DNA of 33,105 nt from Acholeplasma sp. (GCA_012838635.1 DUOW01000034.1:1-33105), one strand, 5' to 3'. Positions 1 through 28,313 are shown, numbered from the stretch's first letter. Notes: a model not told the origin generated them from the sequence alone. Program-made: numbers and translations.

Positions 1-18
1 ATATTTAAGAGGTTAATT

Positions 19-7573: not shown

Positions 7574-9388
7574 TTATTGTGCATCTTTAACTCTTGTATA
7601 AGGTTCCCATTTTAGAGCCTTATCTGTTGGTGTAAGATTATATTCAAAGTCAAATTCAACTTCTTCATAGCTTGTATATTGAGCTGAATTAGAATACTTA
7701 GTATTAAAAAGTCCCTCTGCTGAAGCGTGAATTCCAGTTAATTTATTATCTTTAACTCTAACTTGTAATTCAGCCTCTGATTCTTTGATTGTAGATGAAT
7801 TGAAATCACCAAAAATCTTAACATCAACACTAGCATAATCAAATGGATCCACATTTAGCTCGTCATTTAACCATGTAAGCATAGAAACTAAAGCTTGATG
7901 TGTTAAACCTAAAGCATAGATTGTTTCCCCTGTTTTGCTATCAACTGTAGTTTGAATATAATTAATATCGTTAGCTTTATTATATAAATCTAAAAGATAA
8001 AATTCATCACTACGATTTGCAATATAAGGAGTTACTTCTTTCGTTTTATCTTTAAGTGCCTTCTTTTCAATTAACCAAACTTCGCCATTTACAAGCATAC
8101 TTTTATGGATTTTAATATCATCTAAACCTTTACCTTTGTATAATTCAGCTTTCTTATAGTCGTTACTTGTAATATCAATAATATTATGGAAATATGTTTT
8201 GTTTCCATCAACTTTACGCATTGTAGATCCTTTGAATTTAGAATTTACTTCTGCTTTTGATAGACCATAATCAATTGCTGTTGTTAGTTCAAAATCATAA
8301 CTTGATTTTGCTTGATTTTGATAATTATTAATAATAGTTCTCATAGTATTTAAATGACTGTTAATTTCCGAATCTGTTAATGCAAGTCCAGAAATCAACT
8401 TTGGAGTAATTGAAGGACTTACACCTACATTTTTAAACTCTAATTCATAAGTAATACTAAATGTAATAATTTCAACTGCAACAGCAAAAACAAACTTATA
8501 TTTCGTAATTTTACCACTTTTAATTTCTACAAACATTTTTGTGTCTGCTGCGGTTTCAGGTAAATTACCTAAAACTTTCTTCACTTTTTCAGAATTTAGG
8601 TTATTACAAACTAAGGAAATAATACTAGATTTATTAATTTTTGTTTTTAGTTCAAATTCACCCTTAGTTTCAGTTTTCTTCATTTCTAAAATATCATTAG
8701 CTTCATATTCAAATAATGCTTTTGCAAATGTTGAACTATCATGATCATAACTAGAATCTACTTGTTCTAAATCAACTTTTGTAACTATATTATCTTCGTT
8801 CAACCTAATTGTTCTTAAAGTATTATTTTCAAGCATTTTATAAATTGTACCATCATAAAATAATGATCCTGAGTTAATATGCTCATCATAAAACTTAATT
8901 GATCCTGTCCTACTATATTTAGTATTACCATTAGTATTACCATTAAATGCAATAGGAATTCCAGCATTACTTAAATTTGCTTGTGCATGAAGAGTATAAT
9001 CATATTCATATCCTTGAACATCAACTCCTACTGTTCTTTTTCTTGCATTTAAAAAGATAGTTTTACTATCCAAAAATGAAGCATAGATTGTAGTATCTTT
9101 ACTTATTGTTAGTGGAAATACAGCTGCTGTTTTAAAACTACTATCTAAATACCAACCATCAAAAAGATGATTTTCTTTTTCAGGTTCAATAGGTTCATTA
9201 ATCTTTTCACCTTTAGTAATTTCTTTTTTAGGAATATTAGTTCCACCAAATGTTTCAAAAGTCACTTCAACTTTCTCTTCTGTTTGTTCTTTGTTTGGGT
9301 CTGGATTTGGATCTTTTTTACATCCACTTAAAACAAACCCCATAACAAAAACTAGTAATAATGTTAAAACTTTTTTAACTCTTTTCAT
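7574..9388 (-). CDS. Lipoprotein with N-terminal Listeria-Bacteroides (InlB B-like) repeat
   Basis: Lipobox VLSGCKK after a KR-rich signal; repeat VTFETFGGTNIPKKEITKGEKINEPIEPEKENHLFDGWYLDSSF...TTIYASF. Confidence 0.8.
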   Translation of the reverse strand: MKRVKKVLTLLLVFVMGFVLSGCKKDPNPDPNKEQTEEKVEVTFETFGGTNIPKKEITKGEKINEPIEPEKENHLFDGWYLDSSFKTAAVFPLTISKDTTIYASFLDSKTIFLNARKRTVGVDVQGYEYDYTLHAQANLSNAGIPIAFNGNTNGNTKYSRTGSIKFYDEHINSGSLFYDGTIYKMLENNTLRTIRLNEDNIVTKVDLEQVDSSYDHDSSTFAKALFEYEANDILEMKKTETKGEFELKTKINKSSIISLVCNNLNSEKVKKVLGNLPETAADTKMFVEIKSGKITKYKFVFAVAVEIITFSITYELEFKNVGVSPSITPKLISGLALTDSEINSHLNTMRTIINNYQNQAKSSYDFELTTAIDYGLSKAEVNSKFKGSTMRKVDGNKTYFHNIIDITSNDYKKAELYKGKGLDDIKIHKSMLVNGEVWLIEKKALKDKTKEVTPYIANRSDEFYLLDLYNKANDINYIQTTVDSKTGETIYALGLTHQALVSMLTWLNDELNVDPFDYASVDVKIFGDFNSSTIKESEAELQVRVKDNKLTGIHASAEGLFNTKYSNSAQYTSYEEVEFDFEYNLTPTDKALKWEPYTRVKDAQ

Positions 9389-9409: not shown

Positions 9410-10282
9410 TTATGCGTTTTTAAGTTCAGTTTTTTCTGGTTTTTTATAATTATTGTAAAGCGCAAATGGATAAACAAATACTGAAAGCCATACTCCAACA
9501 AACAAAGCTAAAGCTCCAAAAGCTAAAACTAACAACATTCCTAAAACCAAAAATAAAATTTTAACTGTTATTAAGAATATAATTCCCCCAAAATCTAACG
9601 AAAAGATAATCCCAGGAAATCTTACAAACCCAAAAGTAAAGATTGTACCCATAGCTTCTTTAAGAAAATTGTTATTTAAAATAATACAAGCAGGAAAAGT
9701 GTATAAAAGTATAACTGAAATAATTAAACCAATAAAAGCTTCTCCTCTAGTCATATCTGCAGGAACCTCAGTAGAAAAAATTGAAATTAAACCTAAAACT
9801 AACCACAATCCTGCAATAATACCAGTAACAATAAAAGCTTTCTTTCTTCTTCTCTTTGATTCAAAAATATGTCTTCTTAATCTTTGCTCGTTTTGTCTTT
9901 CTACGCAATCGCTACAAACAACCGATCTACCATAAGCATCTTTTCTTCTAACAATTTTTTTAGGATTGTAAATAGGCTCATTACAAATCTCACAAACAGC
10001 TAAAACAGGTGTAGGGTTAATTGGTTTTACTTCTTCCTGGTCTTCAATAACTCGTTCTTCTTTTTCTTTAGGAAGATCATCTTCAATAACTTCATGACTT
10101 AATAATTTATCTAAAGAAATATTGAAAATTTGCGCCATTGAACGAAGAGTAGTAATCGATGGTTCTACATCTCCATTTTCCCAACGCGAAACAGCCTGAG
10201 GTGAAACATAAAGAAGATCGGCTAATTCCTTTTGTGTTAAATTATGTTCCCCTCTTAATTTTCTTATTTTATCACCTAACAT
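9410..10282 (-). CDS. XRE-family transcriptional regulator with treble-clef/zinc-ribbon-like segment and C-terminal TM region
   Basis: LGDKIRKLRGEHNLTQKELADLLYVSPQAVSRWENGDVEPS HTH; CEICNEPI...CSDCVERQ; three or four hydrophobic segments. Confidence 0.85.
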   Translation of the reverse strand: MLGDKIRKLRGEHNLTQKELADLLYVSPQAVSRWENGDVEPSITTLRSMAQIFNISLDKLLSHEVIEDDLPKEKEERVIEDQEEVKPINPTPVLAVCEICNEPIYNPKKIVRRKDAYGRSVVCSDCVERQNEQRLRRHIFESKRRRKKAFIVTGIIAGLWLVLGLISIFSTEVPADMTRGEAFIGLIISVILLYTFPACIILNNNFLKEAMGTIFTFGFVRFPGIIFSLDFGGIIFLITVKILFLVLGMLLVLAFGALALFVGVWLSVFVYPFALYNNYKKPEKTELKNA

Positions 10283-10481: not shown

Positions 10482-11756
10482 TTAAAACAAACCTACTCTT
10501 TCTAATAATACATCAATTAAATTACAATGAAAGATGCCATTGTGGTCATAATAATTATGACTGATGTCCATCCTAACTACAATCTTCTTAAAGAAATCTT
10601 TAGAAAGCATTAAAGATTCTAATTCTGAATTCTCCTTTTTCTCTGAATCAATTCTAAAAGCGGATTGAATATAAACTCTTTTGTCCCCATCATTAACTAC
10701 AAAATCAATTTCCTTTTGAGCATTTGAACCATTATTGCGATCACTAACAACACCTACATCAACTGAATATCCTCTTCTTAAAAGCTCATTATACAAAATA
10801 TTTTCCATAATATGACCCGGGTCAAATTGGCGATAATTTAATCTTGCATTGCGAAGACCCATATCTACATAATAATACTTATTCGGATAATTAAAATATC
10901 TTTTACCCTTAATATCATACCTTTTAGCACAGCTAACTAAAAATGAATCAATTATATATTGAACATAACTTGCAACTAAAGTAGGATTTACTTTTTCTCT
11001 TCTTGAACTTGACAAAGCATTAGCAATATTATTAGGATTAGTTAGTGAACTTATTTGAAAAGCTAAGAAATCTAAAATCTCATTTAAAATATCTTCTTTT
11101 AAAACCCCATATCGCTCTACAATATCTTTCAAATAAACTTCTTCATAAAGCTTAGTTAGATAATCCTTTTTTAAACTATCATCTTTTAAAAGCAAAACTC
11201 TAGGCATTCCCCCATAAAGCATATACTCGTTTAAAGCTTTATTTTTATCTCCACCTACATAATTATAATACTCTTTAAAAGAAAGTGGATAAAGATTTAT
11301 CTGTGTAGCTCTTCCTCTAAATTCAGTTGCAATATCAGTAGATAAACCCTTAGAATTACTATCAGTTACATATACGTCTAAATTCTTATAAGATTTAAGC
11401 TCATTTAATAAATCATAGATTGTAACTTCAATATTCTCATTTTCTTTATCAACAACTTTTAACGTTAACTGTACTTCATCAATAAACAAAAAGAATCTTT
11501 CGTTTTCTTTATTTACTACTAACCCCTCTACATATTCAGCCAAAACAATCGGATTACGATACTTATAATATCTTCTCTCATCAAGTTTGATTTTAATTAT
11601 GTTATCTTGATTAACACCATTATTAAGTAAATACTCATAAAACAAATCAAAAAGCAAGACAGATTTACCTGACCTTCTAATACCAGTAATTACTTTAATC
11701 TCTCCATTACCCTTAGCATCTATTAACTTTTCTAAATAATAATCTCTTTTTATCAT
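10482..11756 (-). CDS. AAA+ ATPase with DUF4143-type C-terminal region (PD-(D/E)XK-like fold)
   Basis: Walker A GIRRSGKS, Walker B FLFIDEVQ, LYPLSFKEYYNY, LYGGMPRVL, C-terminal KEIDFVV...VYIQSAF. Confidence 0.85.
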   Translation of the reverse strand: MIKRDYYLEKLIDAKGNGEIKVITGIRRSGKSVLLFDLFYEYLLNNGVNQDNIIKIKLDERRYYKYRNPIVLAEYVEGLVVNKENERFFLFIDEVQLTLKVVDKENENIEVTIYDLLNELKSYKNLDVYVTDSNSKGLSTDIATEFRGRATQINLYPLSFKEYYNYVGGDKNKALNEYMLYGGMPRVLLLKDDSLKKDYLTKLYEEVYLKDIVERYGVLKEDILNEILDFLAFQISSLTNPNNIANALSSSRREKVNPTLVASYVQYIIDSFLVSCAKRYDIKGKRYFNYPNKYYYVDMGLRNARLNYRQFDPGHIMENILYNELLRRGYSVDVGVVSDRNNGSNAQKEIDFVVNDGDKRVYIQSAFRIDSEKKENSELESLMLSKDFFKKIVVRMDISHNYYDHNGIFHCNLIDVLLERVGLF

Positions 11757-11892: not shown

Positions 11893-11922
11893 AAAAGACT
11901 TAACCAAATGGTTAAGTCTTTT
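11893..11922 (-). terminator. Terminator of the ABC/giant-lipoprotein operon
   Basis: AAAAGACTTAACC-AAAT-GGTTAAGTCTTTT, perfect 13-bp stem. Confidence 0.85.
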
Positions 11923-11936
11923 ATTATTCTCATTAT

Positions 11937-14900
11937 CTAGCTTGGATCTACTAACTCTAAGTAAGCATAAGTATAATCAGCAGGATATAATGGAATCTTT
12001 GTAACTACTTCTAAGTATTGAGGTATAGTTCTTGGATTAGCAGTTAGGATAGATTCTAAAGTAGCTCCACCTGCTATTTGCAATGTTTCTTCTTTTGTTA
12101 GGTTATAGAAACCTGCAAGCATTCCAAGATTACCTACATATTCAGCTGGTACACCGTTCATCATTAAATAAGTAACTAGTTCTGTAAATCCTGCAGCTGG
12201 ACTGTATGTAGCAATAGCAGGATAAATAAAACCATTATTATCACTTGGATCTCTTGGATCTCGATACTGTGTAGGTACTAAGTTAGGATCATAAGTTCTG
12301 TGTCGGCTTTGAGTTCCTGTATCTAAACCTTCTTGACCAATATGGATGAAGTATTGCGCACTAGCTACAGTTGTATTATCTTCTAACTTTAAGTAAGCAT
12401 TATCCATTGATGGAGCAAGTATAATTAAATTCATCTTTTCACTTAACTGTCCTGTAAGTTGATCTTGCTCAGTCTTTAGAATACTTCTTCCTGCTTCTGA
12501 TACATATCCTTCAATTGTAGATTTCATACCTGCAACCATTGTTGACATCGCATAGGCGTTAAACCAAGCTTCATTACCATTAATCCAGTTATTAATTGTT
12601 GTATTTTCATCAATATTTACATGAACATCCCAAATTGGACCTACTTCTGGATTCGCATCCTCAACATGGATTGCCGCTCCTCCTGATTTACCAATTTTAG
12701 AATTAGTAATCGTAATCCCAGTTCCACCATACATATAAACACTATTAGCCCAAGAATCATCAATTTGTACATAATCAGCTTTCATTAAAACTTGTTCAGA
12801 TCCTACTTCATTAGTCATTAAACCTGAAGCATCGTTATATAAAGCAATTAAGGAGTTAGTGATATTTACATTATTGATTCTTGTAGAACCTTTTCTTGCA
12901 AGAATTGCATTAAAACTACCTGAGTTTTGTGTCATTTGCGCTTCTTGTGATTTAATCTCTTCTGGTGATAAGTTATAATCAATATATGGATAAGATGTAT
13001 TGCTATTAATTGTTAAGTTGTTAATCGTTAGCATATTATCATTATAATGAATACCATAACCAGGAACATATCTACTACCACCTTTTTGAATCTTTTGACC
13101 ATTAATTAACTTATCTTTAAACATTTCCTTTACAAAATAATGTTCAGGAGAGTTATTATAAACATCATATTTAAAGATTGATAAGCCAACATTAAATACT
13201 GGAAATCCCGTACTTAATGGTAAGTAATTAGAATAAGCAGCACTCATATGAGGTAAATTAGAACCATTAACTGTTAGGTAGTTACCATTAATAACAATAT
13301 TGTCTCCTGATGTTGTAGCAGAAAGACGGCGATATGGATCACCATTGATAGCGCCATCGTTATTAATAGCACCATCGTTATTAATTGGTGAACCATCTGG
13401 ATTAAGTTGATTTGGTAATAATTGTACTTCAATATTGTTTTGAATATTGATTGTTTGAACACTCATATTTCCAAAAAGTGTTTTAAGTTCACTACTTGTA
13501 TAAGCATTATACCCATTATTTACATAAATATTGTATTCTAAACTTGCCCAAGTATGTTCATTAGCTTGATATTTCGGCTTAACAACAACCTTAAAATCAT
13601 GACCAACAGCATTTACAGTAAACTTGAATATGTTTTTCTTACCTGTAACTTCAGCTACATAATGCTCTAAAGCTGAGCCTTCTTCTAAAGGAGTGCTAGC
13701 TCCATCTAAGTAGAATAAGTATTCTAACTCTAACTTGTCTAAAGGAACATTATTTAAGTTTGTATCTTTAATCGCATAAGTAAACTTAAAGTCATTACTT
13801 GAACCAACTAAGAATTTCTCTGTTCCAGTTAATGGTTTTAAGTATTTTCGATCAGGTGATGCACTACTTGTTTCATATTTAAACTTCGTATAAGCCTCAC
13901 CCAAACTAAATTGACTAAAGTCTTTTACAATCTTAGCTAAATATAGTTTAGCTACATCTTCGGCTGGCTTTTTAATAGTCATTTGGAAATCACCAATTAA
14001 ACCTAAGTTTGTTTTAATTACAGGAGCATTTGTTCCTTCTTTGTAACTTAAACTAACAATATCAGCGTTTTGAACGATATTAATTTCATAACCTTCAGGG
14101 AAGTTATAAGTCATATTTTCATATAGAATATAACGTTGTGAAGGTGCTCCTAAAATTGTTACATCTTCCAAAATGTAATGATCATATGCCATTGAAGAAT
14201 CAGGCGTAATATCAGTGTCTACTTCAATAATATATGGATCTGAATATGGACTATTTAAAGTATTTAAGTTATCACCTAAAGCTCTTACAGTTAATCTATT
14301 TGTACCAATCGCAATTAGGTTGGCAAAGAATGGATCTAAGCTTGATACTTCTAAAGTAAATTCAAACCCTGAAACACTAAAATCACTAATTAATACTTCC
14401 TCATATAAATGGTTGATAAATAAACCAAAACCATAAGGTAAGTTACCTTCAATTTGTGATGGATTTAAATTAAGTTTGATTTGAATTACTTCTTCTCCTG
14501 ATAATTTTTGAACACTCATTATTACTGGCTTTGCAAAGGGAATCAGCGCCCTAAACTTCGCAAAGATATTCTTTTCTCCTGTTCCTGGATGAAGAACAGA
14601 GAATTTCATATCACTTGGATTTGTAATTGGAACTTCGCTTCCTTGATCTAAATAATACCAATATTCAAAAACATAACCTGGAGCTTGTAAGTTCCAAAGT
14701 GGAGACCCTGCTTCAAATAACAAACCATCATCACCATAATCAGCCTTATCAAACACAGCTACTGTACTACCATTAACTACAAATGTAAGTAAGGTCTTAC
14801 TTGTATTTGTATAACGAGCATAAATTGTTACATTTTCTCTTAAGAAATTAAAGTTAGTTCTTTCCCAAGTTGCAATATAACTGGCTTGAACTGGAATTTC

Positions 14901-17882
14901 CGGCCATACTAAAGTTCCTTCCCCGCCATTTTCTGTAAATGCTAAAGACTGGCCATAGAAGATTGCATATGAACCAAATGGAATCATATTACCTGTTAAA
15001 TCTCCATTTTCAAATCCCATAAAAGTAATTGTAACTATAATTCTTTCATAGTAAATCTCTAAATTGATAATATCTTCAATTGCAAATGTTTGATCACTAT
15101 TTAAATATTCGACCCCATTATTAATCATCTTTACAAAACGATAACCAGGAATAGCTTGATATGGTCTTACAATTGTACCATATTGGTATCTTTCTTTTGT
15201 AACTGAAGTTCTTGATACTTCAATTGGTGTTGATCCAGCTACATAATCAATAATTTCTTTTTCAAGTCTAATAATTTTATACCTTAAGTTAAGGTTTTGG
15301 TTATTGTATTGTAAGTAAACTGTTAAATCATTTTGAGGCATAAAGCTATTTTTTGTATATTCATTACCATCAGCATCTTGATAACCCATATATGCTTTAC
15401 CTACATAATCAATTCTAATTAGCATTGATAATTTTGCTCCCCATTTTAAAATATGAGGTGTAGGAAGATAATCGGGATCATTAATATAGTTAGTGTTAAC
15501 TACAGTTAACTTATAACTTATTCGTTCAAAATATACTTTTAAAGCTAAGCTACCATCACCTAAAACTGTTCCACTTAAAACATTATTTTCATGGTCTTTA
15601 AACTCATAATGATCTATAGTTTTTAGGTCAGTTAAAGTTAATGTAACTGTGCTTTCAGTTAAAGCTTGTTTTACTTCATCTAAATTAGGAGTATAAATAT
15701 ACTCACCATTTTCATTTTCTAAATAGTATTCTACTTTATAAGTTACTTCTCCCGGAAGCCAAATTGCTTCAACTTCCATTGATGTATCTGGCATCACTGA
15801 AGGAAGCAAAGGATTCCAGCCACCAAACTCATAACCTACCTTTGTAGGTTCTAAAGGCGTAATCGTTGTTCCTGGTTCTTGAGAAATTAAAGTTGTTGAT
15901 AGATTACCACCATTTAACTTCAAAGTAATTACTGGCCAAATACTATAATCAGCATATAAATCAAGATTATTTGCTGGCATTTTAGTAATCATAAACTCAT
16001 TTAAAAATGTACCATCATCAGTAAACCAACCTACAAACGATACACCATCTTTAGTAGGTACAGGCAAGCTAATTGTACTATTATAGGCAAATGTTAGAAG
16101 CGTATTTTCTACTGTTCCTCCATTTGGATGTAATGTAATTGTATAAGAATTAAGATTCCAAGATGCCTTAATTGTCATATTATTAGCTGGCATTACTTCA
16201 GGAATTACTTGATCCCAAGAAGCAAAACTGTAACCAGTTTTTGTTGGGTCATCTGGTGCTACAATAACTGTACCATAATCTTGGTAGATTGCTGCTACAG
16301 CTGATCCACCATTAGAATCAAAAGTAATCTTATACTTATTTACTGTAAATTTAGCACTTACAGTAATATCTTCTATATATAAATATAATGTTTCGTTTTT
16401 AATTTCATCTTCTTGATAAAACCAACCCTTAAATGTATGACCTTCTTTAGCAGGATGTTCTAAAATTCCACTGTCATTTACAGCTAAACCATAAGTAACA
16501 TCTTTGGCCTCCCCAAAAGGTATCCCATCTACTTCAAAATAAATCTTATAACTATTTGCTAGCCACTTAGCTTTAATCGTTAAGTTATTTTCAATTAAAG
16601 TATCTAAGCTTACCTCTTCTTGATCTTCATAAACAAAAGTACAGCTATGACCAACTTTAACTGGTATTTCAATAACATCATCTAACTTATCGCCATATTC
16701 GACTTCAATTGTTAATTCATCTAAATCACCAGTAAACTTACCACCATTAGCTAGTAGTTTAAGTTCAAAAGTCTTCTTTTTCCAAGAAGCATTAATTGTT
16801 ATATTAGAAGTAACAATCGTATTTTCAAAAACTTCAGTTCCGTTTTCTAAATAAAAGCCTTTAAAATCATAACCTGCTTGTTCTAAAACCGTAATTGCTC
16901 CAATAGGTGAGCCATGATTTACAGTTCTTGTTTCTACTTGTTGTTCACTTTTAAAATCGATTGTAACTGTATAATGTTTAATACGATATTTCGGATAGAA
17001 AACAAAATTATCACGAATATGATTAAAATCATAGATTTTACTATTTACTTCAAACCAACCAATTGGATCATATCCTTCTTTAGCCGGTAGATTTGGAGCA
17101 ATAACCTCACCATTATGAGGAATCACTTCATTATAAATTTCATTTCCGCCTTCGCTATCTAAAAAGATAACATTATAAGTTTTCGTAACGATATGATACT
17201 GAAACTTAAGGTTATTTTTAACCTCTCCTACTTCAGTTACAACATCTTCTTCTCCAAACTTAGTCCAATAAATAATATCACCTTCATTAGTAGCTACAAC
17301 AGGAAAACTAAGTAAAGTTCCATAAAGAACATTGTCTTGCTCTGCATAAAGGTTGCCTTTGGGATCAAAAAACTCAACTTTATACTTACTAGGAATTAAC
17401 TTTCCATAAACTGTTAAGTTTTCTCCTGGCATATTACCTACAGCGTAAGCAACAGTTAAAGCTTCATCTTTATACCAACCACCAAAAGTATAACCTTCTT
17501 CATACGGATCTTCTACCACTACTCTACTAGCATAACTGGCAGTAATTTCTTTAAATAAATTAGGGCCAATCATAAATTTCATCGTGTAAGAATTAATCGT
17601 CCATTTCGCATAAAGTTTTGTATGTCTAATGATTGGACGGCTTAAATCAAAACTTTCAGTTAGATCTTTATCATAAAACCAACCTGCAAAAGTATACCCA
17701 GTTCTTTTAGCCTCAGGCTCACTTTTAAAAACAAAGCCCGAGTCTACATTTTTACTTGGTATTGCCTCTCCTCCGTTTGTTACAAAATCAATCTTTAGTT
17801 GTTTATTAACGCAACTACAACCAGCTACAAAGAGCAAGCCAACTAATAATGTAATAAAAACAAAAATTCTTTTCATAATCAT
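11937..17882 (-). CDS. Giant lipoprotein with tandem InlB B-like repeats, MucBP-like modules and a beta-helix-like C-terminal region
   Basis: ORF of 1981 aa; lipobox FVAGCSC; repeated F..NGG...GY.F.GW......T.YA.W units; C-terminal INNVNITNSLIAL...GITITNSKIGKSGGAAIHVED ladder. Second ATG at 17876 may be the true start. Confidence 0.9.
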   Translation of the reverse strand: MIMKRIFVFITLLVGLLFVAGCSCVNKQLKIDFVTNGGEAIPSKNVDSGFVFKSEPEAKRTGYTFAGWFYDKDLTESFDLSRPIIRHTKLYAKWTINSYTMKFMIGPNLFKEITASYASRVVVEDPYEEGYTFGGWYKDEALTVAYAVGNMPGENLTVYGKLIPSKYKVEFFDPKGNLYAEQDNVLYGTLLSFPVVATNEGDIIYWTKFGEEDVVTEVGEVKNNLKFQYHIVTKTYNVIFLDSEGGNEIYNEVIPHNGEVIAPNLPAKEGYDPIGWFEVNSKIYDFNHIRDNFVFYPKYRIKHYTVTIDFKSEQQVETRTVNHGSPIGAITVLEQAGYDFKGFYLENGTEVFENTIVTSNITINASWKKKTFELKLLANGGKFTGDLDELTIEVEYGDKLDDVIEIPVKVGHSCTFVYEDQEEVSLDTLIENNLTIKAKWLANSYKIYFEVDGIPFGEAKDVTYGLAVNDSGILEHPAKEGHTFKGWFYQEDEIKNETLYLYIEDITVSAKFTVNKYKITFDSNGGSAVAAIYQDYGTVIVAPDDPTKTGYSFASWDQVIPEVMPANNMTIKASWNLNSYTITLHPNGGTVENTLLTFAYNSTISLPVPTKDGVSFVGWFTDDGTFLNEFMITKMPANNLDLYADYSIWPVITLKLNGGNLSTTLISQEPGTTITPLEPTKVGYEFGGWNPLLPSVMPDTSMEVEAIWLPGEVTYKVEYYLENENGEYIYTPNLDEVKQALTESTVTLTLTDLKTIDHYEFKDHENNVLSGTVLGDGSLALKVYFERISYKLTVVNTNYINDPDYLPTPHILKWGAKLSMLIRIDYVGKAYMGYQDADGNEYTKNSFMPQNDLTVYLQYNNQNLNLRYKIIRLEKEIIDYVAGSTPIEVSRTSVTKERYQYGTIVRPYQAIPGYRFVKMINNGVEYLNSDQTFAIEDIINLEIYYERIIVTITFMGFENGDLTGNMIPFGSYAIFYGQSLAFTENGGEGTLVWPEIPVQASYIATWERTNFNFLRENVTIYARYTNTSKTLLTFVVNGSTVAVFDKADYGDDGLLFEAGSPLWNLQAPGYVFEYWYYLDQGSEVPITNPSDMKFSVLHPGTGEKNIFAKFRALIPFAKPVIMSVQKLSGEEVIQIKLNLNPSQIEGNLPYGFGLFINHLYEEVLISDFSVSGFEFTLEVSSLDPFFANLIAIGTNRLTVRALGDNLNTLNSPYSDPYIIEVDTDITPDSSMAYDHYILEDVTILGAPSQRYILYENMTYNFPEGYEINIVQNADIVSLSYKEGTNAPVIKTNLGLIGDFQMTIKKPAEDVAKLYLAKIVKDFSQFSLGEAYTKFKYETSSASPDRKYLKPLTGTEKFLVGSSNDFKFTYAIKDTNLNNVPLDKLELEYLFYLDGASTPLEEGSALEHYVAEVTGKKNIFKFTVNAVGHDFKVVVKPKYQANEHTWASLEYNIYVNNGYNAYTSSELKTLFGNMSVQTINIQNNIEVQLLPNQLNPDGSPINNDGAINNDGAINGDPYRRLSATTSGDNIVINGNYLTVNGSNLPHMSAAYSNYLPLSTGFPVFNVGLSIFKYDVYNNSPEHYFVKEMFKDKLINGQKIQKGGSRYVPGYGIHYNDNMLTINNLTINSNTSYPYIDYNLSPEEIKSQEAQMTQNSGSFNAILARKGSTRINNVNITNSLIALYNDASGLMTNEVGSEQVLMKADYVQIDDSWANSVYMYGGTGITITNSKIGKSGGAAIHVEDANPEVGPIWDVHVNIDENTTINNWINGNEAWFNAYAMSTMVAGMKSTIEGYVSEAGRSILKTEQDQLTGQLSEKMNLIILAPSMDNAYLKLEDNTTVASAQYFIHIGQEGLDTGTQSRHRTYDPNLVPTQYRDPRDPSDNNGFIYPAIATYSPAAGFTELVTYLMMNGVPAEYVGNLGMLAGFYNLTKEETLQIAGGATLESILTANPRTIPQYLEVVTKIPLYPADYTYAYLELVDPS
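13342..13392 (-). repeat. 18-bp in-frame tandem repeat (encodes INNDGA)n
   Basis: GC(G/A)CCATCGTTATTAAT(A/T) in tandem, 2-3 copies. Confidence 0.7.
14545..17812 (-). repeat. Region encoding about 15 divergent InlB B/Flg_new-like protein repeats
   Basis: Manual parsing of the translation into about 15 units of roughly 60-85 aa ending in (Y/V)AKW/YADY/YERI-like strands. Confidence 0.75.
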
Positions 17883-17894
17883 TTACCTCATTAT

Positions 17895-18428
17895 TTATTC
17901 TATTCCCGATTCGCCATCTTTTTTAAAGTATAGCAAAACGTGGTCTGATATTCCTTGATTCTTTTTTGACACTATTTTCACATCAAATGTTTTCTTTAAA
18001 TCACTTAAGTCAAAGATTAATGTAATCCTGTTAGAATTATAATCAACCCTAAAGTTTAGATCACTAACAACATCAATATCTTCTCTTAAGATAGAAAGAA
18101 TTCTACTTCTTTCCTTTAAATACTCTTCTTCATCAAGATATTTTTCTCTTAACCCAGCTTCAAAAGCAGCAGGTAGTGTAAGTTCATAATACAAATCAAA
18201 ACTTAAATTACTATCAGTTACAATATCTTTTAAGTCTTTAATTTTAATACTTGTTACCGTACCATCTTCATTATTCTCATATTTATAGCCATCATAGCTT
18301 TCAGGAGAAATTATAATTTCTTCAAGATTTACACTTACGTTATCTGGAAGTGTACCAATTAAAGCAATAATCAGTACTGAAAGAAACGAAAAAATAATAA
18401 TTACAAAAACTACAATTTTTTTACTCAT
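17895..18428 (-). CDS. Small single-TM, probably extracytoplasmic protein of unknown function
   Basis: ORF with SD AAGGAGG; N-terminal hydrophobic anchor then soluble acidic domain; sits between the permease and giant lipoprotein genes. Confidence 0.75.
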   Translation of the reverse strand: MSKKIVVFVIIIFSFLSVLIIALIGTLPDNVSVNLEEIIISPESYDGYKYENNEDGTVTSIKIKDLKDIVTDSNLSFDLYYELTLPAAFEAGLREKYLDEEEYLKERSRILSILREDIDVVSDLNFRVDYNSNRITLIFDLSDLKKTFDVKIVSKKNQGISDHVLLYFKKDGESGIE

Positions 18429-18439
18429 ATTATTCCTCC

Positions 18440-20044
18440 TTACATCTCAATATCAATAAAGTAAGCACTTAAATAGCTTCTAAAATAAACAAACCTGACG
18501 ATAAGTAGTAAAATTGCTAGGCCAAAAAGAAGAATCCAAACATAAGGTCCTAAAATAAAAGTTCCGCCTAATGCTAAAATTCCGGCAATAAAACTTAAAG
18601 TAAAGCCAATGCCAATTGATTTACTAATGTTAGGACTATTCCTCAATGTCCCTAAAGTCATTGCTTGATTAAGCTGTGGGTTTAGAATATCAAGCTCAAA
18701 GCTCCAAAAGATATGCGAGATATTAATCATAATTACGAGGATAAAGATTAACCATAAATCTAAAGCCGGAAATTTTGGCAGTGCCAGCCTAAACACAACA
18801 AAACTAATAAAGATTAAGAGTGTAGAAATTAAAATATTAAATAAGATCTTCGCCCAAGCAATCGTCTTCGTATCACTTGGTGCTGTCTTTAATAACACAA
18901 ACTCTTGTCCTTCCCCAGAAATTGCTGTTGCTGAGGCGGTATTAGATGATGTTGCAATAAGTAGAGTAATAATAATATTAAAAACTAAAACATAAGTATT
19001 ACCATTTAAACTACGGTTCATTCGCATATAAATTGAGTTAATAATTAACATCACAAAAGGCATCATCAATAATAGTGAATAATGACTTAAGGTATCACCA
19101 AAACTTCTAAAAGAGACAATTAACTCTTTCTTAAAGAAAGCAATAAATAAGTTATTACTCTTTTCATTTTGAGCTTTTCTTTTCTTACTTCTTGCTTCCT
19201 CAAATGTTAGACTAGCAAGCTTAAAGTAAAGTGGTTTAATCAAAAGATAAACAATCACAAATAACACAACTGGTGTTATTAAAAAGACCGGATACCATAA
19301 ACCTAAATTTTGTCCATACAAAATATAACCAGCAACTTTGTAGATTGTAGCATAATTAGAAATAGCCATCATTGTATCATATAAATTATTTGTAAAAGAA
19401 TGATATAACTGAACAATCCTTATTTGATCCGGTAAGAATGATAGTCCATAACTTACAAGTAAATATAAGGCTACAAAAACAACTGACCCCAAAATTACAG
19501 GTAAAAAACTATATCTTTTAAATAAGTTTTTAAAAAATGTTAGCTGGATTGAAATTAAGCTAGAGATGGTGGTTGCTAAAAACGGTAAAACAAACATCAA
19601 AACGATAACTCCAAGATAATAACTAAATCCCATATCTTTAATAATTCCAACACCAATAAGTAGGGGAATAATAAAGTTTAAACTTCTTAATAACTCCCTT
19701 AAATATGAAACAATTAATTTACTAATAAAGATATCATTATCAGTTACAGGAAAAGACATCAAAATCTGATTTTCCTTACTCTCGTAAAGGGAGTTCATTA
19801 ACTGTGATGTAATCCCTCCAATACTAAAGGCTTGGGATAATAATATCATTACAATAACAAAGTAAATATTTACGGTAATATATAAGAAATTATTAAATAG
19901 ATAAACAACTAACGCCATCACAATTGTAACCAAAACAATTCTTAAGATTCTTAAAGCAATCTTCGCAAAAAGTCTTTTATTCCTTTTAATTTCAGTTAAA
20001 TTACTTAACTGTAAAATCGTTAGTATTTTTAAACGACTAAGCAT
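18440..20044 (-). CDS. ABC-2-like transporter permease
   Basis: Multi-TM protein with SFPVTDNDIFISKLIVSYLRELL; overlaps the upstream ABC ATPase gene by 8 nt. Confidence 0.8.
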   Translation of the reverse strand: MLSRLKILTILQLSNLTEIKRNKRLFAKIALRILRIVLVTIVMALVVYLFNNFLYITVNIYFVIVMILLSQAFSIGGITSQLMNSLYESKENQILMSFPVTDNDIFISKLIVSYLRELLRSLNFIIPLLIGVGIIKDMGFSYYLGVIVLMFVLPFLATTISSLISIQLTFFKNLFKRYSFLPVILGSVVFVALYLLVSYGLSFLPDQIRIVQLYHSFTNNLYDTMMAISNYATIYKVAGYILYGQNLGLWYPVFLITPVVLFVIVYLLIKPLYFKLASLTFEEARSKKRKAQNEKSNNLFIAFFKKELIVSFRSFGDTLSHYSLLLMMPFVMLIINSIYMRMNRSLNGNTYVLVFNIIITLLIATSSNTASATAISGEGQEFVLLKTAPSDTKTIAWAKILFNILISTLLIFISFVVFRLALPKFPALDLWLIFILVIMINISHIFWSFELDILNPQLNQAMTLGTLRNSPNISKSIGIGFTLSFIAGILALGGTFILGPYVWILLFGLAILLLIVRFVYFRSYLSAYFIDIEM

Positions 20045-20924
20045 CTTTCTTTTCCTTCTTCGCTTTTTTCTTAGCTTCTTTTTGAAGTTTGATTTCTGCT
20101 TTTTTAGCTAACTTTTCTTGGCTTTTAGCTGCTGCTTCTAATTGTTCGTGATTTGTTAAGTATAACTTTTCTAAATCAGCCCCTTCTTTCATAATATCTT
20201 TAACCGCAAAATCACCTATAAGTTTACCTTGGTTGATAATACAAATACGATCACATAACTTCTCTACAACTTCAATAATATGTGTTGAGAAGAAAACAAT
20301 ATTACCATTATCTGCATGCTCTTTCATCATTTGTTTGATTTGGAACGAACTTGCTGGATCTAGTCCAGTTAAAGGCTCATCGAGAATCCAAACTTTTGGA
20401 TTATGGATTAAAGATGCAATAACTACTAACTTTTGCTTCATACCATGAGAGTATGATTTAACTTCACGGTCAATTGCAAACCCTAACTGAAACTTCTCTA
20501 AATATTCTTCTAACCTTTGATCACGGTCTTTAGGGTCTACTCTGTATAAATCTGCTACATAGTTAATATATTCTCTACCAGTTAGCCTTTCATAAACAGC
20601 ATGGTTATCAGAAACATAACCAATTCTTAGTTTAGCTTCCATTGGTTGCGATTTAATTGAGTACCCGCAAACATACATCTCCCCTTCAGTAATTGACTGA
20701 ATACCAACTAAAGACTTAATTGTAGTTGATTTACCTGCACCATTATGGCCTAAAAAACCATAAACATAGCCAGTTTCAATTGTAAGCGAAAAGTCATCAA
20801 CAGCTTTTTTCTTACTACTGCCATACCTTTTTGTAAAGTGCTCAATAACAACTTTATCTTGATATTCAGGTTTAATTGGATCTGATAAATTTTTGCTTCC
20901 TAAAGCTTCTTTTAGTTTATTCAT
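20037..20924 (-). CDS. Alternative internal-start product: stand-alone ABC ATPase (about 295 aa)
   Basis: In-frame ATG at codon 469 of the 22328 ORF preceded by AAGAGGATAGAG-ATG (SD at 20930-20935); starts just before the ABC domain. Confidence 0.45.
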   Translation of the reverse strand: MNKLKEALGSKNLSDPIKPEYQDKVVIEHFTKRYGSSKKKAVDDFSLTIETGYVYGFLGHNGAGKSTTIKSLVGIQSITEGEMYVCGYSIKSQPMEAKLRIGYVSDNHAVYERLTGREYINYVADLYRVDPKDRDQRLEEYLEKFQLGFAIDREVKSYSHGMKQKLVVIASLIHNPKVWILDEPLTGLDPASSFQIKQMMKEHADNGNIVFFSTHIIEVVEKLCDRICIINQGKLIGDFAVKDIMKEGADLEKLYLTNHEQLEAAAKSQEKLAKKAEIKLQKEAKKKAKKEKKDA

Positions 20925-22316
20925 CTCTATCCTCTTTTCTTTTTGTTTTTTAATTAACGCTGCTTGATTATCAATTGCTTGATATACAAGGTCATAGACA
21001 TACCAACTCATAAACATCAAGAAAACAAATCCAAGATATAAAAGAATTTGGTAAACATAGAAGAATTTAAATGTTAGTCCTTTATAGGTAAATGATGCTA
21101 CATAATCAGTTTGTAACCACTGTAAGTTAAATCTTTTTGTAATATCAAAACCGTAAGTAAAGAAATAATCAACACTTTCATAATTATTAAACCAAGCATT
21201 TAAAAACACAACTAAAATATAATAAAGTGTAAAGATTCCAATTGCCTTTCTCATATCCTTAAGTTTAGGCTTTTCAAAAATCTTTAAAGCAACACTTAAA
21301 ATCGGAATAACAAAGACTAAAAAGTGACTATAGCTAAAGTGCATTACACCAATACTAAAAACATCACTTGAATAGTTAGGAAGCATTATAGCTACAAATG
21401 CCCCTAAGACATTGGCAAAGTAGGTAAAATAAAATACTCTTCTTGAATTAAAAACATATGCTATAAATAACAAAATAACAGCTGTATTACATAAGTGTAA
21501 AGGCAGTCCCCCATATCCTCTTCTTTCTAAATAGAAATACTGAAAAACTCCAGCTATTACCATATATGTAAGAAACATCTTTCTTGTTTCAAAAGTCCGT
21601 TTCTTTAAAGCAAAGTAAATAACAAAAATTAAAGCAATATACAAACTAATTAAGAATAAGTGAACTTTATTAAAGTTTTCTGCTACTTCTCCATATTTTC
21701 CAAATAAGTTATAAATAAAACCTAAAGGCATTAAGAAAATCAAACTTCCTAAGAAAAGCAAAATCGTATCTCTTACTTCTTTTTTATTTGGCCATAATTT
21801 ATCTTTAATTAAATTAAACCAATTTATTGTTACAATAACAATAGTTATCATTATTTGTATCATAATCAAAATTGATCGATATTTTAAATAATTAACTTCA
21901 CCATAAACAGCAATTAGATGTTGATCCAAAAAGATTAAATTAAGTACTATTAAAACAGGTCCTAAAAATGTAGATAAGAACTTCGCATGTTTAGATTTAA
22001 TAAATGAACTAATAACACTCATTGCAATCAGGATTGTCGTTAACCACCTTAGAATATGAATAAAGACAGTCATCCCTGGTGAAAAAATCCATGTATCAGG
22101 TGCATAAGCTGGTTCAGTTGACTTTACATCAACCAAAAGTACGTTAAATACATCGTCTAAGGCATTTTCAAAGTTTAACCCAATTACATATGATGTAAAA
22201 AGTAAAACCGCTAAGACCTTTAAAACAACTTCTATCTTTAAATCCTTTTTTTTATAAAGTAAGTATAATATTCCTAAAACAATAATACTTACTCCTAATA
22301 TGATAATTTGCGGCAT
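20037..22316 (-). CDS. YwaF/TMEM164-like (TIGR02206-like) membrane domain fused to an ABC transporter ATP-binding domain
   Basis: ORF track starts at 22328 (GTG); ATG 22316 has SD GGAGG. N-terminal TM domain with GGLPLHLCNTAVILLF and HFSYSHFLVF. C-terminal Walker A GHNGAGKSTT, signature YSHGMKQKL, Walker B VWILDEPLTGLDP. Confidence 0.85.
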   Translation of the reverse strand: MPQIIILGVSIIVLGILYLLYKKKDLKIEVVLKVLAVLLFTSYVIGLNFENALDDVFNVLLVDVKSTEPAYAPDTWIFSPGMTVFIHILRWLTTILIAMSVISSFIKSKHAKFLSTFLGPVLIVLNLIFLDQHLIAVYGEVNYLKYRSILIMIQIMITIVIVTINWFNLIKDKLWPNKKEVRDTILLFLGSLIFLMPLGFIYNLFGKYGEVAENFNKVHLFLISLYIALIFVIYFALKKRTFETRKMFLTYMVIAGVFQYFYLERRGYGGLPLHLCNTAVILLFIAYVFNSRRVFYFTYFANVLGAFVAIMLPNYSSDVFSIGVMHFSYSHFLVFVIPILSVALKIFEKPKLKDMRKAIGIFTLYYILVVFLNAWFNNYESVDYFFTYGFDITKRFNLQWLQTDYVASFTYKGLTFKFFYVYQILLYLGFVFLMFMSWYVYDLVYQAIDNQAALIKKQKEKRIEMNKLKEALGSKNLSDPIKPEYQDKVVIEHFTKRYGSSKKKAVDDFSLTIETGYVYGFLGHNGAGKSTTIKSLVGIQSITEGEMYVCGYSIKSQPMEAKLRIGYVSDNHAVYERLTGREYINYVADLYRVDPKDRDQRLEEYLEKFQLGFAIDREVKSYSHGMKQKLVVIASLIHNPKVWILDEPLTGLDPASSFQIKQMMKEHADNGNIVFFSTHIIEVVEKLCDRICIINQGKLIGDFAVKDIMKEGADLEKLYLTNHEQLEAAAKSQEKLAKKAEIKLQKEAKKKAKKEKKDA

Positions 22317-22466
22317 AATAACCTCCACCTTATAAAACTATATAAAAAAACCAGAACCTTCCTTTTATTCCCTCAAAGGTTACTCCCCATCACTAATAAA
22401 ATTCAAAATTCTGACTTATTTTAAATTTATATGTTTTATAAGTATTAAAATTTCAATGTCTTATAT

Positions 22467-22625: not shown

Positions 22626-22663
22626 AAATTTGAGCTAACTATTAATTAGTTAGCTCAAATTTT
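22626..22663. terminator. Strong hairpin terminator
   Basis: AAATTTGAGCTAACTA-TTAAT-TAGTTAGCTCAAATTT then T-rich. Confidence 0.75.
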
Positions 22664-24530: not shown

Positions 24531-25865
24531 TTACAATAAAAATATTAATGTTGCAATACCAAAATAAATTAGTAATGCAAATAAGTCATTAAGTGTGGAA
24601 ATGATTGGTCCAGATGCAATTGCTGGATCGACTTTCATTTTCTCTAAAATAATTGGAATAAATACTCCAGCCATAGCTGATACAAACATACCTCCAGTTA
24701 AAGAAAGCCCGATTGTTAAAGCAAGAAGCAATGGGCTTTGATCGCCCATATTTGTAAAGTTTAAAACTCCGTATGATAGTAAAAAACCAACTATTCCAAT
24801 TGCAATACTATTTAATAAACCAATCCCTATTTCTTTAAAAATATGTCTTTTTTCTGCTTTTTTTCCTTCTAGTTCATCATGAGATAACTTTAAGATCGTT
24901 ACCGCAATCGATTGTGATCCAATATTACCAGCCATACCTAAAATCATCGGTTGAAACATAATTAAAGCTACAACTTCAACTAATGTTCTTTCAAATACAG
25001 ATAGTAATAATGCAATAACTAAGTTTAAGACTACTGAAAGTAAAAGCCAAGGTACTCTTTGATATGCCCTTACAAAGGCACTTGATGATTCATCATAATC
25101 ACCAACACCAGTCATCTTCTCAATATCTTCTTCATGTTCTAAAATCATGATATTTAAAACATCATCTGCAGTTACAATTCCAATTACTTGCCTATTTTCA
25201 TTTAAAACTGGCAACACCTTTTCTGCGTAATTCTTAAATTTTTTAAACCCAGTATTAATTGAATCATCTATTTTTAAATAATTGTTTGTATTATCAGTGA
25301 TACTTTCAAGGCTATCACTTGCTCTTGCACTAATTAAATCTTTCAGGCTAAAAGATCCAACTAAAACATTATCATCATCAACTACAAAGATATCATCAAT
25401 AAAATCACGATCTTTAGAAGTATTAATTACATATGCTGTGGCATCTTTAATTGAAGAGTTTTGATTAATGATCACAAAATCAGTACTCATAATTGAAGCT
25501 ATCTTTTCTTCATCATAACTCATTAATAATCTAAGTTTAGCTTGTTTAGATTTAGATAATAAACTAATCAAATACATTTGATAATCTTCTTCAAAACTAG
25601 TAATGAAGTGTTTTAAATCATCCGTTTCAAATTCTTGAAGAAAGCTTTTCTTTTGACTTTCTGTTAACAAATTAAAATAGTTTCTCGAAACATCTTCTGG
25701 TAACTCTAAAAAAACTTCCACTGTTTTGTTTAAAGACATTAACCTAATAATGCGCATTGGCGCATCACTAGATGAATCTTTCATCTTTTCTGCTATATCA
25801 TAAGGATGCATCTTAGCTAATTCTTTTTTTAGCTGAGCATCATTTAAACGCATTAATTCCTTCAT
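24531..25865 (-). CDS. mgtE: MgtE-family magnesium transporter (paralog 2)
   Basis: KMHPYDIAEKM, tandem CBS-like region, GNIGSQSIAVTILKL, DPAIASGPIISTLNDLFALLIYFGIATLI. Confidence 0.9.
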   Translation of the reverse strand: MKELMRLNDAQLKKELAKMHPYDIAEKMKDSSSDAPMRIIRLMSLNKTVEVFLELPEDVSRNYFNLLTESQKKSFLQEFETDDLKHFITSFEEDYQMYLISLLSKSKQAKLRLLMSYDEEKIASIMSTDFVIINQNSSIKDATAYVINTSKDRDFIDDIFVVDDDNVLVGSFSLKDLISARASDSLESITDNTNNYLKIDDSINTGFKKFKNYAEKVLPVLNENRQVIGIVTADDVLNIMILEHEEDIEKMTGVGDYDESSSAFVRAYQRVPWLLLSVVLNLVIALLLSVFERTLVEVVALIMFQPMILGMAGNIGSQSIAVTILKLSHDELEGKKAEKRHIFKEIGIGLLNSIAIGIVGFLLSYGVLNFTNMGDQSPLLLALTIGLSLTGGMFVSAMAGVFIPIILEKMKVDPAIASGPIISTLNDLFALLIYFGIATLIFLL

Positions 25866-27173
25866 CTAAAACACCCCCAAAAGAAGTGTTGCACAGCCAA
25901 AATAAATAATTACACTCGTAATATCTATTAAGGTAGTAATAAATGGACTAGATGCAACAGCTGGATCTATTTTCATTTTCTTTAGAATCAAAGGAATAAA
26001 TAAACCAAAGATTGGTCCAATTGCAACTGTAAGAGCAAGTGAAATAAAGACAACTAAGGAAACATTAAGAGGCTGTTCTACTTTTAGTACTTTCGCAATA
26101 ATAAAAGAAACAACTCCGGCTACTAGTCCTAAAGCAATCCCGTTAATTAATCCAGCTAAGATTTCTTTACCACCATTCTTTAAAGCTTTTTTAGAATCTT
26201 TTTTAGATAAGATTCTTAAAGTAACAGCTAGAGTCTGACTTGCAACATCTCCTCCCGCATCTAAAATTAAAGGCTGAAAAATAGCAAGTACAGCAACTGT
26301 AGTAATAACTTCTTCAAAACGAGTTGTAACAATCGCAATTGGAAGTGATAATGCTAACAGTAAAACAAGCCAAGGTAGTCTTTTAAGAGCAGATTTTACT
26401 ATTCCTTTTGTTTTTGTATCTGGCAAAGCTGATAATTTCTCAAAATCATCAACTGATTCTTCATGATAAATATCAATCGCATCATCGATTGTTAAAATAC
26501 CAATTAATTCTAACTCCTTATTTAAAACTGGCATTTCATACAAACTATAATCTTTCATCTTATGAATTGCCTCTTCAACATTATCATTTGACAAAACATG
26601 GGGACTTAGTTTAATAATATCATCAATGTACGCGGGAGCTTTAGTTTTAACTAAATCTCTTAGCTCCACAATTCCTTTAAACTTCTTCTCTTCATCTACA
26701 ATAAAAATATGATTGTTAATACTAACTTCTCCTGCTTCCTTAATAACCTTTTTAGTAGCAGCTTTAATATCCATCCCTAAATTAAGACTAATAAAACTAT
26801 CGGACATATGAGCTCCAACTTCTTGATCATCATAATCAAGTACTTTAGAAATATGTTCTTCATTTTCTAAAGCATGAATTAATTCTTCTTCATTGTCCAT
26901 ATGAACTATGATATCCGCAGCATCATCAAGCTCTAATGTATCCATAATATTCTTTTGTCTTTCAAAATCAAAATCATCAATAACATCAGCAGCTTCTTCA
27001 GGCTCCATAAAAGCAATAATTCTTGCTATTTCTTCTTCAGAAAGAAGTGAATAAAATAAATCTTTTTCTTCTTCACTTAAACCTTTTACTTCTTCAGCAA
27101 TATCATAAGGATGCATCTTCTCTAAATGCTGAAGTAGTAACTTTTGATCTTTTCGCTTAATAATAGACTTCAT
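25866..27173 (-). CDS. mgtE: MgtE-family magnesium transporter (paralog 1)
   Basis: ORF track starts at 27212, but ATG 27173 has SD AAAGGAG. LEKMHPYDIAEEV, EPEEAADVIDDFDFE, CBS, GGDVASQTLAVTLRIL, DPAVASSPFITTLIDITSVIIYF. Confidence 0.92.
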   Translation of the reverse strand: MKSIIKRKDQKLLLQHLEKMHPYDIAEEVKGLSEEEKDLFYSLLSEEEIARIIAFMEPEEAADVIDDFDFERQKNIMDTLELDDAADIIVHMDNEEELIHALENEEHISKVLDYDDQEVGAHMSDSFISLNLGMDIKAATKKVIKEAGEVSINNHIFIVDEEKKFKGIVELRDLVKTKAPAYIDDIIKLSPHVLSNDNVEEAIHKMKDYSLYEMPVLNKELELIGILTIDDAIDIYHEESVDDFEKLSALPDTKTKGIVKSALKRLPWLVLLLALSLPIAIVTTRFEEVITTVAVLAIFQPLILDAGGDVASQTLAVTLRILSKKDSKKALKNGGKEILAGLINGIALGLVAGVVSFIIAKVLKVEQPLNVSLVVFISLALTVAIGPIFGLFIPLILKKMKIDPAVASSPFITTLIDITSVIIYFGCATLLLGVF

Positions 27174-27198
27174 ATTAAAACTCCTTTCTAAAATATTA

Positions 27199-28254: not shown

Positions 28255-28266
28255 GTTTTTACCTCC

Positions 28267-28313
28267 TGCCCAAATTATATCATTTTTTGCGCACGTTGTC
28301 AATATATGCCCAA
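28267..28313 (-). promoter_or_regulatory. Consensus promoter with three phased TGC(C/G)CA boxes
   Basis: Minus strand TTGACA-17 nt-TATAAT (28274-28302); TGCCCA at 28267, TGCGCA at 28288, TGCCCA at 28307. Confidence 0.7.

What the first reader, a model, noticed from the sequence alone, without database searches (positions are those of the whole stretch)
11937..22316. Candidate undescribed system: YwaF-ABC fusion + permease + small exoprotein + giant InlB-repeat lipoprotein
Seen: four minus-strand genes lie in one tight cluster (8-nt overlap, then gaps of about 12 nt each). The last terminator-like hairpin on the upstream side is at 22626 and the next on the downstream side is at 11893. The products are a fused membrane-domain/ABC ATPase, an ABC-2-like permease, a single-TM exoprotein and a ~1980-aa lipoprotein. 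Known: giant InlB-like repeat proteins are surface stalks, and dedicated ABC partners for one such protein are not standard. Inference: the ABC module may export, modify or energise the giant lipoprotein, or the complex may act as one surface machine.
Basis: partly seen in the sequence, partly recalled or inferred. Interest (0 to 1): 0.72.

Follow-up and report, generated by a model that had tools for sequence, protein, structure and literature searches.

The report
ABC machine with dedicated surface lipoprotein
In uncultured relatives of mycoplasmas, four genes that are inherited together encode an ATP-driven membrane machine and one very long surface protein that belongs to it; the set recurs in many species, appears undescribed, and what it moves or builds is still unknown.

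Summary
Four minus-strand genes lie between two terminator-like hairpins: YwaF/TMEM164-ABC ATPase fusion, 12-TM permease, single-TM exoprotein, 1981-aa InlB-repeat lipoprotein. What is conserved is not the InlB stalk (lipoproteins range from about 670 to 3568 aa) but a C-terminal Ig-like plus parallel beta-helix domain of about 600 aa. That domain occurs in 25 of 296 class genomes, all 25 among the 29 that carry the cassette permease (P about 10^-32). Permease and beta-helix trees agree (Mantel r 0.96) even where both disagree with host family. Tandem cassettes have their own lipoproteins. The permease folds like NosY/CcmB/Wzm exporters. The ATPase motifs are intact. The TMEM164 motif PxHLCN is kept except in one genome, which suggests but does not prove an acyl-transfer role. 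Best reading: a dedicated type-V ABC machine acting on or through its beta-helix lipoprotein, analogous to GldAFG or NosDFY but homologous to neither as a system. Substrate and direction are unproven.

The parts
20037..22316 (-). Gene 1: fusion of an N-terminal multi-TM region with a YwaF/TMEM164 domain (about 21018-21668) and a C-terminal ABC ATPase (about 20121-20852)
   Evidence: PF14808 E 2.9e-16, PF00005 E 4.9e-26; motif LPLHLCN, Walker A GHNGAGKST, signature SHGMKQK, Walker B WILDEP
18440..20044 (-). Gene 2: 534-aa permease with two exporter halves (about 12 TM), PF16949-like, type-V (ABC-2) exporter fold
   Evidence: AlphaFold2 pLDDT 82; Foldseek: mycobacterial efflux pump, NosY, CcmB, Wzm
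17895..18428 (-). Gene 3: 177-aa exoprotein with one N-terminal TM segment; relatives carry an Ig-like (Big_2) ectodomain
   Evidence: Big_2 matched by 5 of 18 relatives; immediately 3' of the permease in the cassettes
11937..17882 (-). Gene 4: 1981-aa lipoprotein (lipobox ...LFVAGC, Cys22) with InlB/List_Bact repeats as a stalk
   Evidence: (PF09479 E 4.8e-68)
11940..13892 (-). Conserved C-terminal part of the lipoprotein (aa 1331-1981): Ig/cadherin-like domain followed by a parallel beta-helix; found only with this cassette
   Evidence: (AlphaFold2 pLDDT 81, pTM 0.86)
15813..17795 (-). Region of the InlB/List_Bact repeats (variable stalk)
   Evidence: PF09479 matches
22626..22662 (.). Terminator-like hairpin upstream of the cluster
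11893..11922 (.). Terminator-like hairpin downstream of the cluster

Best explanation
The four genes encode one ATP-driven envelope machine. SHOWN by genomics: they are a conserved, co-inherited unit, and the lipoprotein's C-terminal beta-helix domain is exclusive to it. INFERRED from fold and motifs: the 12-TM permease plus two copies of the YwaF-ABC subunit form a full type-V (ABC-2 class) ABC complex; the single-TM Ig-like protein is its extracytoplasmic subunit; the lipoprotein, exported separately by the Sec/lipoprotein route, is the dedicated surface partner, with InlB repeats as a stalk of variable length and the beta-helix as working end. INFERRED, less certain: ATP hydrolysis acts on the outer face to assemble, load or stabilise this lipoprotein, as GldA/GldF are needed for stability of the surface proteins GldJ/GldK and as NosDFY serves an extracytoplasmic protein, and the TMEM164-type domain contributes an acyl-transfer (lipid-modifying) step in most lineages. 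What is loaded or modified (lipid, glycolipid, or the lipoprotein's own anchor) is not known.
For: Recurrence: 48 places, all four genes wherever the contig allows. Beta-helix domain in 25/296 class genomes, all within the 29 with the cassette permease; hypergeometric P about 10^-32. Permease and beta-helix distances correlate, r 0.956 over 27 cassettes, p 1e-4, and both trees make the same host-discordant moves (window with f13/f22, G029 away from other f2, G419 with f2). Tandem cassettes in G103 each have a lipoprotein; G146 cassettes are followed by 2-3 lipoprotein paralogues that cluster by cassette. Permease model resembles NosY (TMt about 0.6), CcmB (0.67), Wzm. ATPase motifs intact throughout. 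ATPase scores best among NCBIfam models for DrrA and GldA, both below cut-off. GldA/GldF precedent for stability of GldJ/GldK: PMC9127263. TMEM164 moves acyl chains between phospholipids: PMC10474074; motif P-x-[HQ]-[LI]-C-N kept in nearly all fusions; a stand-alone TMEM164 gene also lies beside several cassettes.
Against: No biochemical or expression data. The beta-helix can be separated from the lipid anchor by over 1,000 residues (over 2,700 in G433), which makes direct contact with the permease hard unless it acts before the stalk extends or the stalk folds back. The TMEM164 motif is lost in both G146 cassettes (PLGIID in one), so acyl transfer is not universal. Exporter folds usually move small molecules, lipids or glycans. 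Foldseek E-values for both models are weak (best 0.04 and 0.013), so fold class is supported, not homology. The Mantel test has no unrelated-gene control; the discordant hosts are the stronger evidence.
Confidence: 0.5

Rival explanations
1. Lipid or lipid-linked glycan exporter. The ABC complex flips or exports a (glyco)lipid, the TMEM164 domain acylates or deacylates it, and the TM-Ig protein and beta-helix lipoprotein receive, bind or display it outside.
For: Nearest solved permease folds include glycan/lipid-type exporters (Wzm, TarG, ABCA/ABCG) besides NosY/CcmB; nearest folds for the beta-helix are carbohydrate-active or glycan-binding proteins (AlgE4, GH28, SRRP adhesin); TMEM164 is a phospholipid transacylase.
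Against: No glycosyltransferase or lipid-synthesis gene was seen to travel with the cassette. Columns conserved at 75% or more in the beta-helix are almost all Gly, Asn and aromatic, with no conserved acidic/basic catalytic cluster, so it is not an obvious glycan enzyme. The fold resemblance is at the level of the beta-helix class only.
Confidence: 0.25
2. Dedicated lipoprotein acylation. The YwaF/TMEM164 domain acts as transacylase on the N-terminal cysteine of this lipoprotein, and the ABC module presents or extracts it.
For: Fusion of a TMEM164-type domain to the ATPase with the HxCN motif kept; partner is nearly always a lipoprotein; acyl transfer is the known TMEM164 activity.
Against: No shared sequence after the lipobox cysteine among cassette lipoproteins, whereas the distal C-terminal domain is conserved; motif lost in G146; the genome has other lipobox proteins without such a partner.
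Confidence: 0.12
3. Ordinary neighbourhood: an ABC efflux pump and a surface adhesin kept together by chance or by shared regulation only.
For: Small genomes keep many adjacent gene pairs; no direct interaction data. Other PF16949-type permeases in the class lie beside unrelated cytosolic genes (L140-L145).
Against: Exclusive co-occurrence over 296 genomes, matched trees across host-discordant lineages, retention after tandem duplication, and persistence when gene order changes (lipoprotein upstream in L055, L100, L101).
Confidence: 0.08

Closest known systems
NosDFY(L), maturation ABC complex of nitrous oxide reductase
   Same: ABC ATPase + ABC-2-class permease (NosY among the nearest solved folds of P0003, TMt about 0.6) + extracytoplasmic protein; serves an extracytoplasmic partner rather than plain efflux (PMC7660919). 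NosD being a beta-helix protein is from memory.
   Different: Permease has both halves in one chain; ATPase carries a TMEM164 domain; the beta-helix is a lipoprotein on an InlB stalk; an extra TM-Ig protein is present; no nos genes seen in the cassettes; NosD not among the 50 best folds for the beta-helix.
GldA-GldF-GldG gliding ABC complex of Bacteroidota
   Same: ATPase, permease and membrane-anchored exoprotein; ATPase is needed for stability of surface proteins GldJ/GldK (PMC9127263); GldA is the second-best NCBIfam model for the ATPase.
   Different: GldA score 185.7 against a cut-off of 402.6; exoprotein is Ig-like rather than the GldG type; type IX secretion is a Bacteroidota feature; extra TMEM164 domain.
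TMEM164 / YwaF family (PF14808)
   Same: Domain above the Pfam cut-off in gene 1; conserved P-x-H-L-C-N motif.
   Different: Fused to an ABC ATPase and preceded by further TM segments; enzymatic activity untested; motif lost in G146.
PF16949 ABC_tran_2 permeases
   Same: P0003 and relatives match weakly (L119 permease above cut-off).
   Different: P0003 itself is below the curated cut-off; it belongs to a distinct subfamily that goes with the TM-Ig protein and lipoprotein.
InlB/List_Bact repeat surface proteins
   Same: Repeat stalk (PF09479).
   Different: Stalk length highly variable and not the conserved part; the C-terminal end is a beta-helix domain of its own family.

Membership tests
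NosDFY | Permease of NosY-like type-V exporter fold | tested here: inconclusive
   NosY among nearest folds (TMt 0.5-0.6) but E 0.15-0.4
NosDFY | Extracytoplasmic NosD beta-helix protein | tested here: not met
   The lipoprotein has a beta-helix, but NosD is not among the 50 best folds and there is no meaningful PDB sequence match
NosDFY | Linked nosZ/nosL | tested here: not met
   Not in the window; cassette loci were read by custom profiles only, where no constant fifth gene was seen
GldAFG | GldA equivalog ATPase (NCBIfam TIGR03522) | tested here: not met
   185.7 bits vs cut-off 402.6
GldAFG | GldG-type exoprotein subunit | tested here: not met
   P0002 has no Pfam match and its relatives match mainly Big_2
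TMEM164/YwaF (PF14808) | Pfam gathering score | tested here: met
   60.1 bits vs 25
TMEM164/YwaF (PF14808) | Transacylase activity | not testable with these tools
   Motif with conserved Cys/His present; activity needs biochemistry
PF16949 ABC_tran_2 | Pfam gathering score for P0003 | tested here: not met
   23.0 vs 25.7 bits; some relatives pass
Bacterial lipoprotein | Signal peptide with lipobox cysteine | tested here: met
   LFVAGC at aa 17-22; lipobox in nearly all cassette lipoproteins with an intact N-terminus
Internalin (NCBIfam NF033188 InlH/InlC2) | Curated NCBIfam score | tested here: not met
   117 vs 1050 bits; only the repeats match
InlB/List_Bact repeat proteins | PF09479 repeats | tested here: met
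   225.6 bits

The most novel reading that the evidence does not exclude
A previously undescribed class of ATP-powered surface machine in mycoplasma-like bacteria, with a lipid transacylase built into its ABC ATPase, which loads or energises its own dedicated beta-helix lipoprotein at the tip of an adjustable stalk. ABC-only sister systems with long Ig-like exoproteins in the same bacterial class would form a wider superfamily.
Probability: 0.22. Interest if true: 0.85.

Novelty: new variant of a known kind. Interest (0 to 1): 0.6.

Why it matters
Giant repeat lipoproteins are usually treated as passive stalks. Here one class of them has its own ABC complex, which makes a testable claim that ATP hydrolysis is coupled to a surface protein. 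It also places an uncharacterised bacterial branch of the TMEM164 acyltransferase family in a defined functional context, and gives a four-gene signature for surface biology in a large, mostly uncultured group (Acholeplasmatales, Izemoplasmatales and relatives), many of whose carriers lack detectable peptidoglycan transpeptidases.

Tried and rejected
Riboswitch or RNA leader upstream of the fusion: no Rfam match at gathering, and only chance-level matches at relaxed thresholds. TGA recoding: frames are complete under table 11. InlB repeats as the link to the ABC genes: rejected, since other InlB proteins of the genome whose surroundings were read (C36, C41, C45, C57) and window 7574-9388 have no such partner. 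NosD homology: not supported. Enzymatic beta-helix: not supported by column conservation. Adaptation to wall loss: rejected, since transpeptidase is absent in 14 of 20 carriers but present in six. Sequence relatives of known structure: none for the YwaF domain or the permease, and no meaningful one for the beta-helix. First attempt at the named-genome scan failed because the alignment was too diverse; a narrower alignment worked. The primary TMEM164 paper was not held, so its catalytic residues could not be checked. Literature searches returned no paper that appeared, from titles and abstracts, to describe this system.

Full report
OBSERVATION. The four ORFs, their strand, the 8-nt overlap and the 11- and 12-nt gaps are as described. 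All are open in table 11, so no recoding is needed. Pfam gives TMEM164 plus ABC_tran in the fusion, a sub-threshold ABC_tran_2 in the permease, nothing in the 177-aa protein and InlB/List_Bact repeats in the lipoprotein. Terminator-like hairpins flank the cluster at 22626-22662 and 11893-11922; no Rfam family is present.

RECURRENCE. A search of 100 relatives with the fusion found the full-length fusion in other genera of the family and order and in another family of the class. Reading the loci showed the same neighbours: fusion, permease, short TM protein, lipoprotein. A permease profile over 296 genomes of the class gave hits of two kinds: E below 1e-90 in 29 genomes of seven families, and weaker hits from 1e-65 down. 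Nearly all the strong hits were read, and all of those carry the cassette. A scan of named genomes added further cassettes, mostly labelled Acholeplasmatales, Acholeplasmataceae, Izemoplasmatales or Tenericutes MAGs (two labelled Clostridia and one Bacteroidales may be binning errors). A phylum-wide search with the fusion's N-terminal domain found it only in this class and added two more families. In all there are 37 places in nine families plus 11 further named contigs. Where contigs allow, the four genes are always together; in G032 and G034 the TMEM164 and ABC parts are separate genes, and in L055, L100 and L101 the lipoprotein lies upstream.

WHAT IS CONSERVED IN THE LIPOPROTEIN. Length runs from about 670 to 3568 aa. 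The InlB repeats vary; the last 560-650 residues are conserved. A profile of that part hit 25 of 296 genomes, every one of them among the 29 with the cassette permease (P about 10^-32). The two hits on other contigs (G003:C74, G024:C142) are contig-end fragments of the same broken lipoproteins, in the same downstream context as G017. The four cassette genomes without a hit have truncated (G034, G135, G207) or diverged (G032) lipoproteins. AlphaFold2 gives pLDDT 81 and pTM 0.86: an Ig/cadherin-like domain then a parallel beta-helix. Conserved columns are mostly Gly, Asn and aromatic, an Asn-ladder pattern without a catalytic cluster.

CO-INHERITANCE. Permease and beta-helix trees share the same deep split, and the same cassettes are out of place with respect to host family: the window groups with families f13/f22, G029 apart from other f2, G419 with f2. 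Distances correlate at r 0.956 over 27 cassettes. Tandem cassettes in G103 each have a lipoprotein; in G146 each of two cassettes has its own cluster of lipoprotein paralogues. Family f1 is patchy: the window's congener G001 (88% complete) has no match. This points to transfer or loss of the cassette as a unit.

PARTS AND MECHANISM. The permease model (pLDDT 82) resembles a mycobacterial efflux pump, CcmB, NosY and Wzm; single-half chains of about 220-280 residues align to about half of it, so both exporter halves are in one chain and two ATPase subunits are expected (inference). Walker A, signature and Walker B are intact throughout. The TMEM164 motif PxHLCN is kept except in both G146 cassettes, and a second stand-alone TMEM164 gene lies next to several cassettes. 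Human TMEM164 transfers acyl chains between phospholipids (PMC10474074). The short TM protein belongs to an Ig-like (Big_2) group. Precedents for an ABC complex serving extracytoplasmic proteins are GldA/GldF, needed for stability of GldJ/GldK (PMC9127263), and NosDFY (PMC7660919). The cassette meets neither membership test, but the way of working may be alike.

WIDER SUPERFAMILY. The weaker permease hits lie in related clusters without TMEM164: ABC, permease, a long exoprotein with a similar N-terminal TM start (587-1644 aa, several with Big_2), and often a lipoprotein (L106-L110, L146-L159). Ordinary PF16949-type pumps (L140-L145) lack both, which serves as a negative control.

LIMITS. No expression, interaction or activity data; fold matches are of class level only; the literature library is open-access only; genomes are mostly MAGs. 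Lipoprotein export itself needs no ABC transporter, because the signal is an ordinary lipobox.

Noticed in passing
window 7574-9388 and 9410-10282: A second InlB-repeat protein (604 aa) sits next to an HTH regulator (290 aa) and an AAA/DUF4143 ATPase (10482-11756), with no ABC partner.
   Followed up: partly
window 24531-27212: Two adjacent MgtE-type magnesium transporters, 33% identical to each other, with no gap between the genes: a likely tandem duplication.
   Followed up: partly
window 1-1956: Open reading frame that fuses a VTT (DedA-like) domain to an acyltransferase domain.
   Followed up: no
window 27199-28302 and 31632-32522: Two Fic-family proteins in about 5 kb, one SoFic-like and one with an N-terminal HTH.
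   Followed up: no
window 22329-22440 (minus strand leader): The 5' leader of the fusion holds AACCTT...AAGGTT followed by a run of T, which looks like an attenuator just before the Shine-Dalgarno; no Rfam match.
   Followed up: partly
L146, L147, L151, L152, L155, L159: Another recurring cluster in f7, f18 and G040: a 600-aa protein with weak AAA matches, a ~450-aa protein with a possible zinc ribbon, ABC, permease, ~800-aa TM exoprotein, small lipoprotein (with an InlB repeat at its end where scanned).
   Followed up: partly
L176 (G432:C51): A stand-alone TMEM164/YwaF gene followed by an ABC ATPase and two ~260-aa apparent membrane proteins, just before the cassette fusion.
   Followed up: no
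L180:8576-19282 (G433:C14): A 3568-aa cassette lipoprotein with the beta-helix only near its C-terminus, the longest seen.
   Followed up: yes
G000 and cassette-bearing genomes: No PBP transpeptidase (PF00905) in the window's genome or in 14 of 20 carriers searched (own genome included), but present in six carriers of families f1 and f2.
   Followed up: yes
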